This document shows positions 34,602 through 41,319 of a stretch of DNA of 64,000 bases, piece after piece. Position 1 is the stretch's first letter. Each line of letters begins with the position of its first letter. Origin of the DNA: Chitinophagales bacterium (GTDB lineage: Bacteria; Bacteroidota; Bacteroidia; Chitinophagales; LD1). The position numbers and the translations under genes are program-made. The stretch is taken from positions 62,001-126,000 of the forward strand of contig JAEUUZ010000025.1 of NCBI GenBank assembly GCA_016786765.1. The letters run 5' to 3'. The notes below the pieces were generated by a model, which worked only from the letters and a program-made list of their open reading frames with translations, made no database searches and was not told the origin of the DNA.

Positions 34602-35036
34602 ATGTCGCACACTAAACATAAATTATCTGCCACGGCTCGCGTAGAAGTGCGATTTAACGATTGCGACCCTTTGGGTATTGTGTGGCATGGGAACTATATT
34701 AAGTTTTTAGAAGACGGACGTGAAGCATTTAGCAAAAAGTACGGATTCGATTATTTCAGTTTTTACAACAAAGGTTATGCTGCACCCATTGTGCATGTTT
34801 CTTGCGATTATCGAAAGTCGTTGAAGTATAGAGATATAGCGCTCATTGAAGCCACTTTCCGAAAAACCGATGCAGCCAAAATTATCTTCGATTATGTAAT
34901 TCGAAAGGAAAGCGATGGCGAGATAGTATGTAAAGGCAATACCGTACAAGTATTTGTGCATAAAGATACCATGGAGTTGAGCCTCACAGTGCCTGATTTT
35001 ATTGACGAATGGAAAAAAGAAGTGGGTCTGTTATGA
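34602..35036 (+). CDS. Hotdog-fold acyl thioesterase of the polyketide cluster
   Basis: 144 residues from the ATG at 34602. A 4HBT thioesterase: VRFNDCDPLGIVWHGNYIKFLEDGREA carries the active-site Asp/His-like segment of the 4-hydroxybenzoyl-CoA thioesterase family. Its stop codon overlaps the next start (ATGA), so it is translationally coupled to the ketosynthase and probably releases or edits acyl chains in the same pathway. The 46-base gap upstream means the cluster could still be read from mpl. Confidence 0.85.
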   Translation: MSHTKHKLSATARVEVRFNDCDPLGIVWHGNYIKFLEDGREAFSKKYGFDYFSFYNKGYAAPIVHVSCDYRKSLKYRDIALIEATFRKTDAAKIIFDYVIRKESDGEIVCKGNTVQVFVHKDTMELSLTVPDFIDEWKKEVGLL

Positions 35037-36217
35037 AAGCAGTGTATTGGGTTGAGGATTGCGCATTAACGCCTTTAGCATTTACATCCGAAGAAAACTA
35101 CCTGTTCGTTAAAGATGGGCAAACAGCAGTTGCCAACCAAGAACAATTTTCATTAAACGAAAAGCCCTTTTTTGCCTCACTGTTCTCTGAAGAGCAACGC
35201 ATTGGTTTAGAAGACGAATTACTGGAACTCAGGCACAGTGGTGCAGTGCGTGTTGAATATACCAACGATCTCACATGGTTTGAAACGCTTTGTGTGCTTT
35301 CCGTTCAAGAAGCCGTAGCCAATTCGAAAGTGGATTTCTCTGTTGCTAAAAATCTATTCATTCTTTCCACTACTAAAGGAAACATCGAATTGATTGATAC
35401 ACCTGACGATACTCGATTGCAATTGCAAATCACAGCAGAACGCATTTTAAAGGCTTGCGGACTAAATGCCTTTCCGCTTGTAGTATCAAACGCATGTATT
35501 TCTGGTGTTTCAGCCATCATCACCGCACAACGATTTTTGGCTGCCGGAGACTATGAAAACGCTATTATTTGTGGAGCCGATATCATTACAGCTTTTGTAG
35601 CGAAAGGTTTCCAGGCCTTGAATGCTACGGCAGACGGTCATTCTAGGCCCTATGATGCTGCACGAAACGGAATTAATTTAGGTGAAGCGGCTGCTACAGT
35701 GGTATTATCGACTTCCCATTTCACTTCTATTCAAGTGAAAGGCGGAAGTGTTTCCAACGATGCAAATCATATTTCCGGCCCATCGCGAACGGGCGCTGAA
35801 TTAGCCAAAACAGCGGAATTGGCGCTTGCCGAAAGTGGAATTAATGCTGCTGATTTAGCCTTTATTTCAGCCCACGGCACAGCCACTGTTTTTAACGATG
35901 AAATGGAATCCAAAGCCTTTGAATTAGCCGGTCTTTCCGCTATTCCGCTGCAGAGTTTAAAGCCGCATTTTGGACATACACTAGGTGCAGCAGGAGTTCT
36001 AGAATCTATTATTTCAATCCACGCTTTGAACGAAGGAATTGTATTGCCATCCTTGAATTACAATACCTATGGGGTGTCGGGGAAAATCACAGTTAATCAA
36101 AAAAAACAAGCTGTTTATCAAACAAGTATATTGAAAACGGCCTCCGGATTTGGAGGTTGTAATGCTTCTGTTGTATATTTGAAAATAACTCCTGAAAAAA
36201 AATTGTATGAAAACTGA
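35033..36217 (+). CDS. Beta-ketoacyl synthase (intact)
   Basis: 394 residues from the ATG at 35033 (ATGA overlap with the thioesterase; a longer open frame from 35009 is less likely). Complete catalytic triad: Cys155 in VSNACISGVSA, His281 in SAHGTATVFND, His315 in KPHFGHTLGAAG with Lys310. So it condenses malonyl-ACP-type extender units with an acyl starter. N-terminal 90 residues are divergent from FabF. In this cluster it is separated from its likely partner subunit by the flavoenzyme gene. Confidence 0.9.
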   Translation: MKAVYWVEDCALTPLAFTSEENYLFVKDGQTAVANQEQFSLNEKPFFASLFSEEQRIGLEDELLELRHSGAVRVEYTNDLTWFETLCVLSVQEAVANSKVDFSVAKNLFILSTTKGNIELIDTPDDTRLQLQITAERILKACGLNAFPLVVSNACISGVSAIITAQRFLAAGDYENAIICGADIITAFVAKGFQALNATADGHSRPYDAARNGINLGEAAATVVLSTSHFTSIQVKGGSVSNDANHISGPSRTGAELAKTAELALAESGINAADLAFISAHGTATVFNDEMESKAFELAGLSAIPLQSLKPHFGHTLGAAGVLESIISIHALNEGIVLPSLNYNTYGVSGKITVNQKKQAVYQTSILKTASGFGGCNASVVYLKITPEKKLYEN

Positions 36218-37451
36218 AAATGTTGATGTATTAGTCATCGGTGCAGGTCCTGCCGGAACTGTTGCCGCTTCCATGATTCATAAAGCCGGATTTAAGGTGA
36301 AGATTGTGGAAAAAGAAAAATTCCCTCGTTTTGTTATTGGTGAAAGTTTGTTGCCGCGTGTAATGGATCATTTGGACGAAGCAGGCCTGTTGGAGGGTGT
36401 AAAAGCTGCTGGATTCCAAGAAAAGTTTGGTGCGAAATTCGTTCGCGGTCATGAGGTTTGTGATTTCAACTTTTCGCAACAATTCAGTAAAGGGTGGACA
36501 TGGACGTGGCAAGTACCGCGCGGGCAGTTCGACCAAATTCTGGCTGCTGAAGTACAAAAGAAAGGCATCGAAGTCAACTTCCAAACAGCAGTCACTGATA
36601 TTAAATTTTCCGGTACAGATTCTACTACTACAGTGGTTGATAACAATGGCGAAACATCTACTATTCAAGCTAAGTTTATTGTGGATGCCAGTGGCTATGG
36701 TCGTGTAATTCCGCGTATGTTCGGCTTAGACGAACCTTCAAATTTGGGCGTACGTAAAACACATTTCACACATTTTCGCGATTTGAAACGTCCGGAAGGC
36801 ATTGATGGTAATCGTATTACTGTTGTGGTACATCAGCAACGTACATGGATTTGGATTATTCCTTTTTCAAATGGCATAACATCCGTTGGCTTTGTAGGGG
36901 ATCCTGAATTTTTCTTAGATCATTCCGAAAATCCTGTTGAACGTATGCAATCGATTATTGCAACCAATATCCATACTGCAGAGCGTTTCAAAGATGCCGA
37001 GATGATGTTCGAGCCCAAAACGATAGAAGGGTATTCTATCTCTACTAAGCAATTATATGGCGAGGGATTTGTGTTGTGCGGCAATGCCACAGAATTCTTG
37101 GATCCTGTGTTTTCGTCTGGTGTTACGTTTGCTATGGAATCGGGCAATAAGGCCGGTAAATTAGTAGGAGAGATGTTGGGCGGAAGAACAATTGATTGGG
37201 AAAAGGAGTACACAGCGCACATGATGCAAGGTATTAATGCGTTCAGAACATATGTAAATGGTTGGTATGACGGTAAGTTGCATTCTATTTTCTTTGCCGA
37301 TAACCCGATGGAAGATGTAAAAGAAAAGATTTGTTCTGTTTTGGCCGGCTACGTTTGGGACTTAGAGAATCCTTTTGTGAAAAATCATGAAGAGGCCGTT
37401 CGCAAGTTGTCACGTGTACTTGAAATTGATAAGATTTTAGCAGAAGGATAG
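36207..37451 (+). CDS. FAD-dependent halogenase-like oxidoreductase
   Basis: 414 residues, starting inside the ketosynthase's end (11-base overlap). FAD-binding GAGPAG at residues 12-17 and GESLLPR at 45-51. Two marks of flavin-dependent halogenases are present: WIWIIP (214-219, WxWxIP) and FLDPVFSSG (297-305, FxxPxxSxG). A Lys at about 73 (QEKFGAKF) sits where the catalytic Lys of phenol/pyrrole-type halogenases lies. Could chlorinate or hydroxylate an ACP-bound aromatic or polyene. Geranylgeranyl reductase-like reduction is the main alternative. Confidence 0.85.
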   Translation: MKTENVDVLVIGAGPAGTVAASMIHKAGFKVKIVEKEKFPRFVIGESLLPRVMDHLDEAGLLEGVKAAGFQEKFGAKFVRGHEVCDFNFSQQFSKGWTWTWQVPRGQFDQILAAEVQKKGIEVNFQTAVTDIKFSGTDSTTTVVDNNGETSTIQAKFIVDASGYGRVIPRMFGLDEPSNLGVRKTHFTHFRDLKRPEGIDGNRITVVVHQQRTWIWIIPFSNGITSVGFVGDPEFFLDHSENPVERMQSIIATNIHTAERFKDAEMMFEPKTIEGYSISTKQLYGEGFVLCGNATEFLDPVFSSGVTFAMESGNKAGKLVGEMLGGRTIDWEKEYTAHMMQGINAFRTYVNGWYDGKLHSIFFADNPMEDVKEKICSVLAGYVWDLENPFVKNHEEAVRKLSRVLEIDKILAEG

Positions 37452-38089
37452 TGACTAGAAGTTCTGTAACATCCTTACCTACTTTAGCAGCATCATGTTT
37501 TATTCATCAAGGGAAATTGGTGGTGAACGGTAATACTGTGTTTTCTTCTCATGCTCCTGTTTTAGATTTTTTTACCGAATTATATACTTTTTCAGGAGTC
37601 AATTACCCGAAATTTTATAAGATGGACGCGCAGTCGCAGTTAGCGTTTTTATGTGCTGAATTTTTACTGAAAAACAATACTATAAATGGGGTTGCGCCTT
37701 TTGATTGGTCTGTTGTTTTGTCGTGCGCCAATTCCAGTAACGATACCGATATTAAATATTGGGAAAATGCCAGGCTAGCTCCAAGTCCGGCTACGTTTGT
37801 ATATACGCTTCCCAATGTAATGCTCGGTGAAATCTGTATTCGCCATGGGTTTAAAGGAGAAAATTCATGTTTTATTTTTAATACATTTGATGCTGCTTTT
37901 CAGGTAAGTTATGTAAATCGTTTATTAGAGAAGCGGGCAAAAGTATGCGTACACGGTTGGGTGAATTTTTTCAAAGAAGAATACGCAGCTTTTTTATTTT
38001 TAACGGTGAATATTGGCGAAACTGAAGGTGAACTTCATTCACCGGAATTGATTAATAAAATAATATCGAATTATGCAGGAATTGATTAG
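37451..38089 (+). CDS. Truncated ketosynthase-like protein (chain-length-factor type)
   Basis: 212 residues, GTG start that overlaps the halogenase stop codon by one base. It resembles only the N-terminal half of a ketosynthase: the block SPATFVYTLPNVMLGEICIRHGF and ENSCFIF, without a nucleophilic Cys in the right place (NTFDAAF replaces it). Similar short 'ketoacyl-synt_2' proteins act as chain length factors in aryl polyene synthases. Likely partner of the intact ketosynthase downstream. Ends inside the ACP gene (17-base overlap). Confidence 0.75.
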   Translation: MTRSSVTSLPTLAASCFIHQGKLVVNGNTVFSSHAPVLDFFTELYTFSGVNYPKFYKMDAQSQLAFLCAEFLLKNNTINGVAPFDWSVVLSCANSSNDTDIKYWENARLAPSPATFVYTLPNVMLGEICIRHGFKGENSCFIFNTFDAAFQVSYVNRLLEKRAKVCVHGWVNFFKEEYAAFLFLTVNIGETEGELHSPELINKIISNYAGID

Positions 38090-38330
38090 CACATTGAAAC
38101 AACAGATTGTAGAGCAATTGAACTTAAAACATATTAAGCCGGAAGAAATTGGTGACGATCAGCCTTTATTTGTGGATGGCTTGGGTTTAGATTCTATTGA
38201 TGCACTCGAATTGATTGTTTTGTTGCAGCAGAAGTATGGCATTAAATTGGCAAATCCGGAAGAAGGACCGAAAGTGTTTCATACGGTTCGTGCTTTAGCT
38301 GAATTCATTACTGCTAATCAGAAAAAATAA
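38073..38330 (+). CDS. Acyl carrier protein
   Basis: 85 residues. Ser41 in LGLDSIDALEL is the 4'-phosphopantetheine attachment site. The acidic four-helix pattern is typical. It overlaps the preceding gene by 17 bases and ends 1 base before the next start codon. As a dedicated ACP between ketosynthases, it carries the growing chain in this cluster. No phosphopantetheinyl transferase gene is in the window. Confidence 0.92.
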   Translation: MQELISTLKQQIVEQLNLKHIKPEEIGDDQPLFVDGLGLDSIDALELIVLLQQKYGIKLANPEEGPKVFHTVRALAEFITANQKK

Positions 38331-38331
38331 G

Positions 38332-39537
38332 ATGCCCTCGGCAGTGTATATTGTTGGCCGTGGTGTTATTTCTGCATTAGGCGATGATCTAAGCGGAAAC
38401 AGGCAATCGTTGCTGCAATCGCAAGCCGGCATAAAAGCGATAACACGCTTAAACACACGCTACTCCGAAATGCTACCTGCAGCTGAAGTGCCGCATACAA
38501 ATGAAGCCTTAGCTGCAATGGCCGATATGCCGGTGACTACAACGCGCACAGCTTTGCTAAGTATGATAGCCGCTAAAGAAGCTTTTGATAGTTTTCAACT
38601 TCCCGATAAACTCAATTATAGAGCCGGTTTTATTTCTGCCAATACGGTTGGCGGAATGGATAAAACAGAAGACTTCATGAAGGAATTTGCGGTTGATACT
38701 ACTAAAGGAAAATTGCACGATGTGATTCATCACGATTGTGGTGCAGCTACAGAATTGGTGGCTGAAAAACTAGGTATTACAGAAGTGGTAACTACTATCA
38801 GCACCGCTTGTTCATCGGCCGCAAATGCTATGATTTATGCGGCACGGTTGATTCGAAACGGATACCTCGATTGGGCTATAGCCGGAGGTACAGATGCATT
38901 GTCTCGCTTTACAATTAATGGATTTAATTCGTTGATGATTTTAGATAATGAATTATGTCGGCCTTTTGATGATACACGAAAAGGCTTGAATTTGGGCGAA
39001 GGCGCAGGTTATGTGGTGTTAGCCTCCGAAAAAATAGTAGCGCAATTAGCACAACAACCAACAGTTAAACTCAGTGGTTTTGCCAATGCGAACGATGCCT
39101 TTCATCAAACTGCTTCCTCACCCGAAGGAAGAGGAAATTTTGACGCAATGTCGGGAGCCCTTGCTGAGGCTGGTCTTCAGCCGGCCGATATCGATTATAT
39201 TAATTTGCATGGCACCGGAACTGCGAATAACGATTCTTCGGAAGGCATCGCCATTTCACGATTGTTTGGGAAAGATTTACCGTATTTAAGTTCAACAAAA
39301 ACATACACCGGTCACACGCTTGCAGCTTGTGGCGGTATTGAAGCAATATACTCAACATTAGCCATTGAAGAAGGCGTAGTGTTTCCTAATCTTCGATTCC
39401 AACACCAAATGAAGGAATTGGAATTTGAACCGCAAATCTGTTTATTGGAAGGAAAGGAGATTCGTCATGTGTTGTCGAATTCTTTTGGCTTTGGTGGAAA
39501 TTGTACATCACTCATCTTTTCGAAAGTAAATGAATAA
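38332..39537 (+). CDS. Beta-ketoacyl synthase (intact, KS-alpha type)
   Basis: 401 residues. Full triad: Cys160 (ISTACSSAANAMI), His292 (NLHGTGTANND) and His327 (KTYTGHTLAACG). Close to FabF/type II KS. Being next to a degenerate ketosynthase, translationally coupled, it fits the KS-alpha/KS-beta pair of type II polyketide and aryl polyene synthases. Overlaps the next gene by 8 bases. Confidence 0.92.
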   Translation: MPSAVYIVGRGVISALGDDLSGNRQSLLQSQAGIKAITRLNTRYSEMLPAAEVPHTNEALAAMADMPVTTTRTALLSMIAAKEAFDSFQLPDKLNYRAGFISANTVGGMDKTEDFMKEFAVDTTKGKLHDVIHHDCGAATELVAEKLGITEVVTTISTACSSAANAMIYAARLIRNGYLDWAIAGGTDALSRFTINGFNSLMILDNELCRPFDDTRKGLNLGEGAGYVVLASEKIVAQLAQQPTVKLSGFANANDAFHQTASSPEGRGNFDAMSGALAEAGLQPADIDYINLHGTGTANNDSSEGIAISRLFGKDLPYLSSTKTYTGHTLAACGGIEAIYSTLAIEEGVVFPNLRFQHQMKELEFEPQICLLEGKEIRHVLSNSFGFGGNCTSLIFSKVNE

Positions 39538-40594
39538 GGAACTCTATATCAACGGAATTGGTGCCATCTCTCCACAAAAAACATTCGATAATAGTGTTTT
39601 CTTAGAAGAGGTGTTGAGCTATTCTACGAACAAAATGATGTGTGTAGATCCGGACTATAGCTTGTTTTTTGATGGAAGAGCGATACGGAGAATGAGTCGA
39701 ATTTTGAAGTTTGGAATCGCTGCGGCTATGATTGCTATTGAAGATGCAGGAAAGCCCGAATTAGATGCTATCAGCACAGGAACAGGCTTTGGTTGTTTGG
39801 AAGATTCTGAAATTTTTCTTCGCAATATTGTTGCGGAAAATGAAGGAGTGGTAAGTCCAACGCCTTTTATACAATCTACGCATAATACAGTAAGCGGACA
39901 AATAGCCTTATTGTTGAAATGCCAGAAATCGAATAATACGTTTTCGCATAAAGGGTTTTCGTTCGAAAGTGCTTTGTTGGATGCGCGTTTGAATGCATTA
40001 GATTATAATGTGCAACAAAATTTCTTGGTGGGTTCTTCTGATGAAGTCAGCACAGCAAGTTATGCGATTATGTCGCGCATGAATATTTTTAGAAAAGAAC
40101 CTTGTGATAATCTAGCACAGTTAGCATCGTCCGGAAAAGGAGTGATAGCGGGCGAAGGAGCGGCTTATGTGGTGTTAGGGAAAGCTGCAACTGAAAACAC
40201 GTACGGCCGATTTGTAGATGTGAAAATGATTTCCAATCCGAAAGACGAAGCTACTATTGAAAAAGCTATTCATGCTTTTTTAGCACTACATGAATTGTCG
40301 TTGAAAGATGTAGATATTGTCATCAGTGGTTTGTGTGGCGATGAAAGCAGAGATACTTTATTGAAACACTGCAATGAAAAAGTTTATACTGAACAAACTA
40401 TTGTCGGCTTTAAACATTTGTGTGGCGAGTATATGACGGCATCTTCATTTGCTGTTTGGTTGGGAGCGAAGATGTTGAAAACGCAACAAGTTCCTGAATC
40501 GGTTGTGTTGCGCAATACAGCTCGTACGCCTAAAACTATACTCATTCACAACGCTTATAAAACAAGCCATTCACTCATTTTGCTGAAGCAATGA
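39530..40594 (+). CDS. Degenerate ketosynthase, KS-beta/chain-length-factor-like
   Basis: 354 residues. Thiolase fold is recognisable (FGIAAAMIAIEDAG, STGTGFGCLEDSE, QSTHNTVSGQIALLL), but the nucleophile region reads FSHKGFSFESALLDA (no Cys at the elbow), the HGT block is GLCGDES and the GHxxxA block is LCGEYMTASS. So it cannot condense chains itself; it fits a non-catalytic KS-beta partner controlling chain length. Overlaps the neighbours by 8 bases upstream and 4 bases (ATGA) downstream. Confidence 0.8.
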   Translation: MNKELYINGIGAISPQKTFDNSVFLEEVLSYSTNKMMCVDPDYSLFFDGRAIRRMSRILKFGIAAAMIAIEDAGKPELDAISTGTGFGCLEDSEIFLRNIVAENEGVVSPTPFIQSTHNTVSGQIALLLKCQKSNNTFSHKGFSFESALLDARLNALDYNVQQNFLVGSSDEVSTASYAIMSRMNIFRKEPCDNLAQLASSGKGVIAGEGAAYVVLGKAATENTYGRFVDVKMISNPKDEATIEKAIHAFLALHELSLKDVDIVISGLCGDESRDTLLKHCNEKVYTEQTIVGFKHLCGEYMTASSFAVWLGAKMLKTQQVPESVVLRNTARTPKTILIHNAYKTSHSLILLKQ

Positions 40595-41319
40595 ACAAGC
40601 ATCGAATAACGCTTTTTGTTTTTGTTGTAGCCGCGATGGCTTGTGTGTTTTTTCGACATTATTGGTGGTTAGTATTCGTTGTTTTCTTGTATTTTTTTCT
40701 TTTGTTTTTTGCCGTGCTCATTCCGCAATTCAATTTTTTTGTGGATTCATTACATCGTATCCCTGCCTCCGGAAACTCCGTTGTGCTTACTTTTGACGAT
40801 GGTCCTATGTTCGGGCACACCGAAAAAGTTTTAGCTGTTTTAGCCGAGAAGAAGGCAAAAGCATGTTTCTTCTTAATTGGGAAAAACATGGAACAGCATC
40901 CCGAGTTGGTGAAGCAAATAATTGCGGAAGGCCATCAGGTGGGGCATCACAGCTATTCGCATGTGAATACTTTTCCCATGTGGAGTACACAGAAAGTGAA
41001 AGAGGATATTGCCAAAGCTGCATCAATATTGGAGAATATAACAGGGCAGCAAAATTTGCGTTTTCGAATTCCATTCGGTTTGTCGAATCCGAATATTGCT
41101 AAAGCTATTCTGCAGTGTAACTTTCAGTCTATAGGTTGGTCGTTGCGCACTTATGATACGATGTCGAAATCGAAAGAGCAATTAGTCCATACAATCCTTT
41201 CAAGAGTAAAAGCAGGCGATATTATTTTATTGCATGATTGGGGAACCTATACTGTTGACGCCTTGCCTGAAATTATTGATGGTGTGAGAAGGAAGGGGTT
41301 GGAGATATCCGGACTCTAG
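40591..41319 (+). CDS. Polysaccharide deacetylase (NodB homology)
   Basis: 242 residues. Two hydrophobic segments at the N-terminus (residues 8-22 and 26-46) anchor it; the NodB domain starts at VVLTFDDGPMFGHT (Asp69/Asp70), with metal ligands HHSYSH (about 117-122), RIPFGL and LLHDWG blocks. Deacetylases of this family are regular members of aryl polyene/dialkylresorcinol clusters, where they may act on a sugar attached to the polyene or lipid. Start overlaps the previous stop (ATGA). Last gene of the cluster. Confidence 0.88.
   Translation: MNKHRITLFVFVVAAMACVFFRHYWWLVFVVFLYFFLLFFAVLIPQFNFFVDSLHRIPASGNSVVLTFDDGPMFGHTEKVLAVLAEKKAKACFFLIGKNMEQHPELVKQIIAEGHQVGHHSYSHVNTFPMWSTQKVKEDIAKAASILENITGQQNLRFRIPFGLSNPNIAKAILQCNFQSIGWSLRTYDTMSKSKEQLVHTILSRVKAGDIILLHDWGTYTVDALPEIIDGVRRKGLEISGL

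What the first reader, a model, noticed from the sequence alone, without database searches (positions are those of the whole stretch)
34602..41319. Compact aryl-polyene/flexirubin-like type II synthase without reductase or dehydratase
Eight overlapping genes hold a thioesterase, two intact ketosynthases, two non-catalytic ketosynthase-like proteins, an ACP, a halogenase-motif flavoenzyme and a polysaccharide deacetylase. Known aryl polyene, dialkylresorcinol and flexirubin clusters have related genes, but also a ketoreductase, a dehydratase and a starter-unit enzyme (ammonia-lyase or ligase). None of these is here, and the flanking genes (exonuclease, DUF1287) are unrelated, so the unit seems complete at both ends. 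Either it borrows fatty-acid enzymes or it makes a different, poly-beta-keto product.
Basis: partly seen in the sequence, partly recalled or inferred. Interest (0 to 1): 0.68.

Follow-up and report, generated by a model that had tools for sequence, protein, structure and literature searches.

The report
Middle block of a split flexirubin cluster
These eight genes are the central piece of an ordinary orange-pigment (flexirubin / aryl polyene) pathway whose "missing" reductase, dehydratases and starter enzymes sit elsewhere in the same genome, so it is a known system whose gene cluster has been broken into pieces, not a new kind of synthase.

Summary
The eight-gene operon (34602-41319) is real and annotated about right: thioesterase, KS, FADH2-halogenase-like flavoprotein, half-size KS-like protein, ACP, KS, non-catalytic KS-like protein, polysaccharide deacetylase. 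No ketoreductase (KR), dehydratase (DH) or ammonia-lyase homologue lies anywhere in the 64-kb window. But the same genome carries them on other contigs: C40 has ammonia-lyase-KR-KS-ACP-acyltransferase-DH, C14 has LolA-DUF-DH-glycosyltransferase-MMPL exporter, C40 (20 kb further) FAD-oxidoreductase-C45-AcpS, and C19 a FlxY-like CoA ligase and, separately, DarA/DarB. In relatives (G001 on one contig; L037, L038) these blocks form a single collinear cluster in this order, with the window's genes in the middle, and the content matches the published flx cluster of Chitinophaga pinensis. The poly-beta-keto and fatty-acid-borrowing readings are not needed. The one mildly unusual point is that the cluster is fragmented, with different breakpoints in several genomes of the same family. 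New member of a known kind; low interest.

The parts
34602..35036 (+). 4HBT / YbgC-FadM type acyl thioesterase (ApeK-like role; ATG start at 34602)
   Evidence: PF13279 4e-15, TIGR00051 over cut-off; same place in collinear clusters of relatives
35009..36217 (+). ketosynthase with intact Cys-His-His motifs (FlxI-like by order); best solved relatives are aryl polyene ketosynthases ApeR (7F27) and ApeO (6QSP)
   Evidence: PF02801 2e-21; motifs
36207..37451 (+). FADH2-dependent halogenase-like flavoprotein (WIWIIP motif; K73 within QEKFGAK)
   Evidence: PF04820 1.7e-24; CmlS model 183 bits, under its cut-off; PDB 3nix 2.5e-188, CmlS 4e-46, PltA 2e-39; motifs
37451..38089 (+). 212-aa half-size ketosynthase-like protein, single thiolase fold, probable chain-length-factor partner (ApeC-like; FlxL by order)
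   Evidence: PF00109 part, 17.8 bits, below cut-off; profile vs PDB best = ishigamide CLF 6kxd_B, E 1.5e-4; AlphaFold model pLDDT 86.6; Foldseek hits ishigamide CLF 5.7e-8, ApeC chains 6qsp_B 5.2e-6 and 7f28_C 6.2e-6
38073..38330 (+). acyl carrier protein (phosphopantetheine Ser in LDSID)
   Evidence: PF00550 9.9e-11, NF006617 over cut-off
38332..39537 (+). ketosynthase with intact Cys-His-His motifs (ApeO-like; FlxN by order)
   Evidence: best solved relative 6qsp_A = ApeO; motifs
39530..40594 (+). 354-aa ketosynthase-like protein without the catalytic Cys (FlxO by order)
   Evidence: PF00109 3.9e-8; none of 17 aligned homologues has Cys at the active-site position
40591..41319 (+). membrane-anchored polysaccharide deacetylase (FlxP by order)
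   Evidence: PF01522 6e-32; the flx cluster of C. pinensis lists such a gene within flxP-flxU (PMC3992019)

Best explanation
The operon is the middle third (up to flxP) of a flexirubin (aryl polyene plus dialkylresorcinol) pathway that is broken into about six loci in this genome. Inferred mechanism: the C40 ammonia-lyase makes 4-coumarate from tyrosine; the FlxY-like ligase (C19) activates it; the window's KS and half-size CLF-like partner, with its ACP and helper KS proteins, extend it with malonyl units; the KR and DH from C40 and the ApeI-like DH from C14 reduce and dehydrate each new unit to give a polyene, not a poly-beta-keto chain; the halogenase-like enzyme probably chlorinates the aryl ring; the thioesterase, acyltransferase, deacetylase, LolA, glycosyltransferase and MMPL proteins release and export the pigment; DarA/DarB supply the dialkylresorcinol ester partner. 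Shown: gene content, collinearity with relatives, active-site motifs. Inferred: product, the role of each enzyme, joint action of the dispersed loci.
For: Own genome: ammonia-lyase PF00221 at C40; KR, KS, ACP, acyltransferase, DH-like beside it; ApeI/FabA-like DH, LolA, GT2, MMPL-acyltransferase-methyltransferase on C14; DarA (BtrH_N/DUF4872) and DarB (KAS III) on C19; FAD-oxidoreductase-C45-AcpS on C40, adjacent to the MMPL gene in relative G001; FlxY-like ligase, 51% identical to G001's cluster ligase. Collinearity: G001 carries ammonia-lyase-KR-KS-ACP-LPLAT-DH-TE-KS-hal-212-ACP-KS-KSlike-PDA-LolA-DUF-DH-GT2-MMPL-FADox-C45-AcpS-ligase on one contig; L037 and L038 run the same from ammonia-lyase at least to the DUF gene, G010 to GT2, and L022, L040 and L074 hold long parts of it. 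Of 49 named Bacteroidota loci with at least 9 kb each side of the 212-aa gene, 45 have an ammonia-lyase, KR or DH within about 10 kb. Published flx cluster content matches (PMC3992019). The other loci hold no second copy of most window genes apart from a C19 ACP-KS-KSlike set, so the pieces complement each other.
Against: No expression, pigment or product data. The pieces lie on different contigs, so joint action is inferred from conserved content. The window genes are mostly only about 40-60% identical to relatives (the ACP up to about 80%). The 151-aa DH on C40 matches no Pfam family at E 0.001 and is called DH only by position and length.
Confidence: 0.93

Rival explanations
1. The operon is an autonomous non-reducing type II synthase making a poly-beta-keto or aromatic product.
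For: No KR/DH/starter gene in the 64-kb window; KS plus a half-size CLF-like protein.
Against: The window genes keep the order they have in clusters that also contain KR, DH and ammonia-lyase; the genome has exactly the complementary blocks; the KS is closest among solved structures to ApeO, a reducing polyene KS.
Confidence: 0.03
2. The KS/ACP genes serve primary fatty acid or lipid synthesis, or borrow its KR and DH.
For: KS and ACP belong to the FabF/AcpP superfamilies.
Against: A dedicated KR and DH-like genes are in the C40 and C14 blocks in flx order; the genome has another, stronger FabF-type KS on C6; only 22 of 30 same-family genomes have the 212-aa gene, so it does not look like a housekeeping function.
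Confidence: 0.02
3. The operon is a relic piece of a flexirubin cluster that no longer works.
For: Cluster is fragmented; 8 of 30 family genomes have no match to the 212-aa gene.
Against: All eight frames are open with translational overlaps and intact KS/ACP motifs; all complementary blocks are present and open.
Confidence: 0.02

Closest known systems
Flexirubin (flx/dar) clusters of Chitinophaga pinensis and Flavobacterium johnsoniae (PMC3992019)
   Same: Same enzyme set: ammonia-lyase FlxA, KR FlxB, several KS-type proteins, two DHs, deacetylase, LolA, GT, exporter, CoA ligase FlxY; dar genes at a separate locus, as in C. pinensis.
   Different: Here the flx part is further broken into about five loci; a CmlS/PltA-like flavoprotein sits inside the KS block (also in some relatives).
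Proteobacterial aryl polyene clusters (ape; ApeO-ApeC, ApeR; PMC8358021, PMC8253772)
   Same: KS plus half-size chain-length factor, second KS, ACPs, two DHs, KR, thioesterase, LolA-like, DUF3261-like, RND exporter.
   Different: The ape starter is a benzoyl-type unit loaded by an acyl-ACP synthetase, not a tyrosine ammonia-lyase product; no dialkylresorcinol block is implied.
Ishigamide KS-CLF (6KXD, 6KXE, 6KXF)
   Same: Best profile and fold match of the 212-aa protein is its chain-length factor.
   Different: The ishigamide chain-length factor is full length; here it is half-size as in ApeC.

Membership tests
Flexirubin (flx) pathway | Aromatic amino acid ammonia-lyase (FlxA-type) starter enzyme | tested here: met
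   C40:87570-89093, PF00221 4.4e-157; 65-71% identical to the near-full-length copies in family genomes, but about 34% to the other (HutH-type) copy at C6. Tyr specificity not tested.
Flexirubin (flx) pathway | 4-coumarate CoA ligase (FlxY-type) | tested here: met
   C19:69860-71113, 51% identical to the ligase at the end of the G001 cluster; identity with C. pinensis FlxY itself was not tested.
Flexirubin (flx) pathway | Ketoreductase | tested here: met
   SDR/FabG-type KR on C40, PF13561 3.7e-60
Flexirubin (flx) pathway | Two dehydratases (FlxF, FlxS positions) | tested here: inconclusive
   C14 124-aa protein: FabA 28.6 bits (over cut-off), ApeI-like below cut-off. C40 151-aa protein: no Pfam match at 0.001, assigned by position.
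Flexirubin (flx) pathway | Dialkylresorcinol enzymes DarA and DarB | tested here: met
   C19: BtrH_N + DUF4872 protein (DarA type) and KAS III-type protein (DarB type); that DarA is a BtrH_N/DUF4872 protein is from my own knowledge.
Flexirubin (flx) pathway | flx genes in one contiguous cluster (usual, but not a strict requirement) | tested here: not met
   Blocks on C60, C40 (two), C14, C19 (two). Dar genes are separate in C. pinensis too, and other family members are also split.
Flexirubin (flx) pathway | Aryl polyene-dialkylresorcinol ester pigment produced | not testable with these tools
   Needs chemistry.
Aryl polyene KS-CLF (ApeO-ApeC type) | Catalytic KS closest to ApeO | tested here: met
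   6qsp_A top PDB sequence match, E 2.7e-56
Aryl polyene KS-CLF (ApeO-ApeC type) | Half-size CLF with a single thiolase fold | tested here: inconclusive
   212-aa model, pLDDT 86.6; Foldseek matches ApeC chains with prob 1.00, but TM is only about 0.5 and full-length KS/CLF chains score as well; the half-size single-fold CLF is described in PMC8358021.
FADH2-dependent halogenase | Sequence similarity to characterised halogenases | tested here: met
   CmlS 4.4e-46, PltA 1.7e-39; WIWIIP motif.
FADH2-dependent halogenase | Halogenating activity | not testable with these tools
   Closest solved relative 3nix is named only 'flavoprotein/dehydrogenase'.

The most novel reading that the evidence does not exclude
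In this bacterial family the flexirubin pathway has been broken up repeatedly and independently into dispersed sub-operons with different breakpoints, while gene order inside each block is kept, so that a whole pigment pathway works from about six loci.
Probability: 0.55. Interest if true: 0.3.

Novelty: new member of a known kind. Interest (0 to 1): 0.15.

Why it matters
It removes a false lead: a 'reductase-less' type II synthase that a cluster finder would call incomplete or novel is one block of a dispersed known pathway. It also warns that genome mining by physical clustering will misread such genomes, and the family offers a natural series of clustered and scattered versions of one pathway.

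Tried and rejected
I considered a poly-beta-keto product, fatty-acid service and a relic; each is given as a rival and rejected. The second ammonia-lyase (C6) is only about 34% identical to the cluster type and was set aside as HutH-like. Assembly artefact as the cause of the split was rejected for the window block, which lies well inside a 153-kb contig between unrelated genes. Paper searches for 'flexirubin' with 'tryptophan halogenase', and with 'split' and Chitinophaga, found nothing. A sequence search of the 212-aa protein alone against the PDB gave only weak hits, mostly antibody chains; the profile and the fold search worked. One tblastn scan of the window used the wrong record and was repeated; the locus tallies are unaffected.

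Full report
Observation. The window holds eight co-directional, tightly packed ORFs at 34602-41319: a 4HBT thioesterase, a KS, a FAD halogenase-like protein, a 212-aa KS-like protein, an ACP, a second KS, a 354-aa KS-like protein and a polysaccharide deacetylase. Both KS proteins keep Cys-His-His motifs and the ACP its Ser. The 354-aa protein has no Cys at the active site in any of 17 aligned homologues. Flanking genes are an RNase_T exonuclease and a DUF1287 gene, and a scan of the whole 64-kb window with the genome's own KR, DH and ammonia-lyase proteins finds none.

The missing genes are elsewhere in the genome. The window is part of contig C60 (153 kb) of a 3.6-Mb, 66-contig genome. Searching that genome gave an aromatic ammonia-lyase on C40 and a weak ApeI-like dehydratase hit on C14. 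Reading around them gave: C40 about 83-89 kb, ammonia-lyase, FabG-type KR, KS, ACP, lipid-A-type acyltransferase, 151-aa DH-like protein; C14 about 25-31 kb, LolA, a DUF3261-like protein (name by position only; no Pfam match), FabA/ApeI-like DH, glycosyltransferase, MMPL exporter fused to acyltransferase and methyltransferase; C40 about 59-62.5 kb, FAD oxidoreductase, C45-like acyltransferase, AcpS (names by eye and by homology to G001); C19 about 70 kb, a CoA ligase 51% identical to that of a relative's cluster; C19 about 195-208 kb, DarB, DarA, ABC transporter, then ACP, KS, KS-like, a 561-aa halogenase-like protein and DUF1702.

Relatives show one cluster. A scan of named bacterial genomes with the 212-aa protein brought 80 loci, all Bacteroidota. 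In L037 and L038 the genes run ammonia-lyase-KR-KS-ACP-acyltransferase-DH-TE-KS-halogenase-212-ACP-KS-KSlike-PDA-LolA-DUF (and in L038 on through DH, GT2 and MMPL), apart from an ACP shifted in L038; L022, L040 and L074 show long parts of the same order. In the same family G001 carries this whole series on one contig and continues with FAD-oxidoreductase, C45, AcpS and the ligase. The window operon is exactly the TE-to-PDA part; the C40, C14 and second C40 blocks are the parts before and after. Of 49 loci with at least 9 kb on both sides, 45 have ammonia-lyase, KR or DH within about 10 kb, and 28 have all three.

Comparison with the literature. The C. pinensis flx cluster (flxA-flxY) has an ammonia-lyase shown to act on tyrosine, a CoA ligase shown to act on 4-coumarate, KS proteins FlxC, I, L, N, O, KRs FlxB/V, DHs FlxF/S, and flxP-U for a polysaccharide deacetylase, acyltransferase, LolA, glycosyltransferase and exporter, with darA/darB elsewhere in the genome (PMC3992019). 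The assignment of window genes to Flx names is by order and family, not by comparison with the C. pinensis sequences. Chlorinated and methylated flexirubins are known (same paper), which suits the halogenase-like gene; its best solved relatives are 3nix (unknown function), CmlS and other halogenases including PltA.

The two non-catalytic proteins. Aryl polyene synthesis uses a KS with a half-size chain-length factor (ApeO-ApeC), the factor having one thiolase fold, plus a second KS (PMC8358021). The window's 401-aa KS is closest among solved structures to ApeO, and its 402-aa KS has ApeR and ApeO as best matches. The 212-aa protein has a confident single-domain model that matches chain-length factors, including ApeC, though at TM about 0.5-0.6, and full-length KS chains score as well. 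Its role as an ApeC-like partner is probable, not proven.

Splitting. In the same family, 21 other genomes hold the 212-aa gene. In three (G001, G004, G010) it lies on one contig with the ammonia-lyase; in seven (G003, G006, G015, G018, G023, G027, G029) the two are on different contigs with at least 10 kb to every contig end; the rest are unresolved by assembly, and G020 has no cluster-type lyase. Breakpoints differ: after KR in G003, after the halogenase in G018, after DH in this genome. That suggests repeated fragmentation, but it was not tested on a tree and the genomes are drafts.

Verdict. It is a dispersed but otherwise ordinary flexirubin pathway.

Noticed in passing
L017:4748-9990 (G000 C19 about 195-200 kb): A second ACP-KS-KSlike set (KS 48%, KS-like 39%, ACP 51% identical to the window's) with a second, 561-aa halogenase-like flavoprotein and a DUF1702 protein, near the DarA/DarB/ABC transporter genes.
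   Followed up: partly
L013:6051-14907 (G000 C40 about 66-75 kb): Two adjacent giant proteins (1388 and 1554 aa) built of many copies of a cysteine-rich repeat like 'VCRASAGVCDVAETCTGSSAACPADAF', between two flexirubin blocks.
   Followed up: no
L119 (genome G020, C13): A 95% complete family member has the window-type KS block but no cluster-type ammonia-lyase, only a HutH-like one; its starter unit source is unclear.
   Followed up: no
L151:5751-8117 (G000 C19 about 69-71 kb): The FlxY-like ligase is preceded by a 233-aa SDR and a 122-aa small protein with a CPIC motif; the SDR might be a second ketoreductase (FlxV-like).
   Followed up: no
genome G019 (same genus as the window): The only congener in the searched set lacks the 212-aa gene and the cluster-type ammonia-lyase, but is 87% complete, so loss is uncertain.
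   Followed up: no
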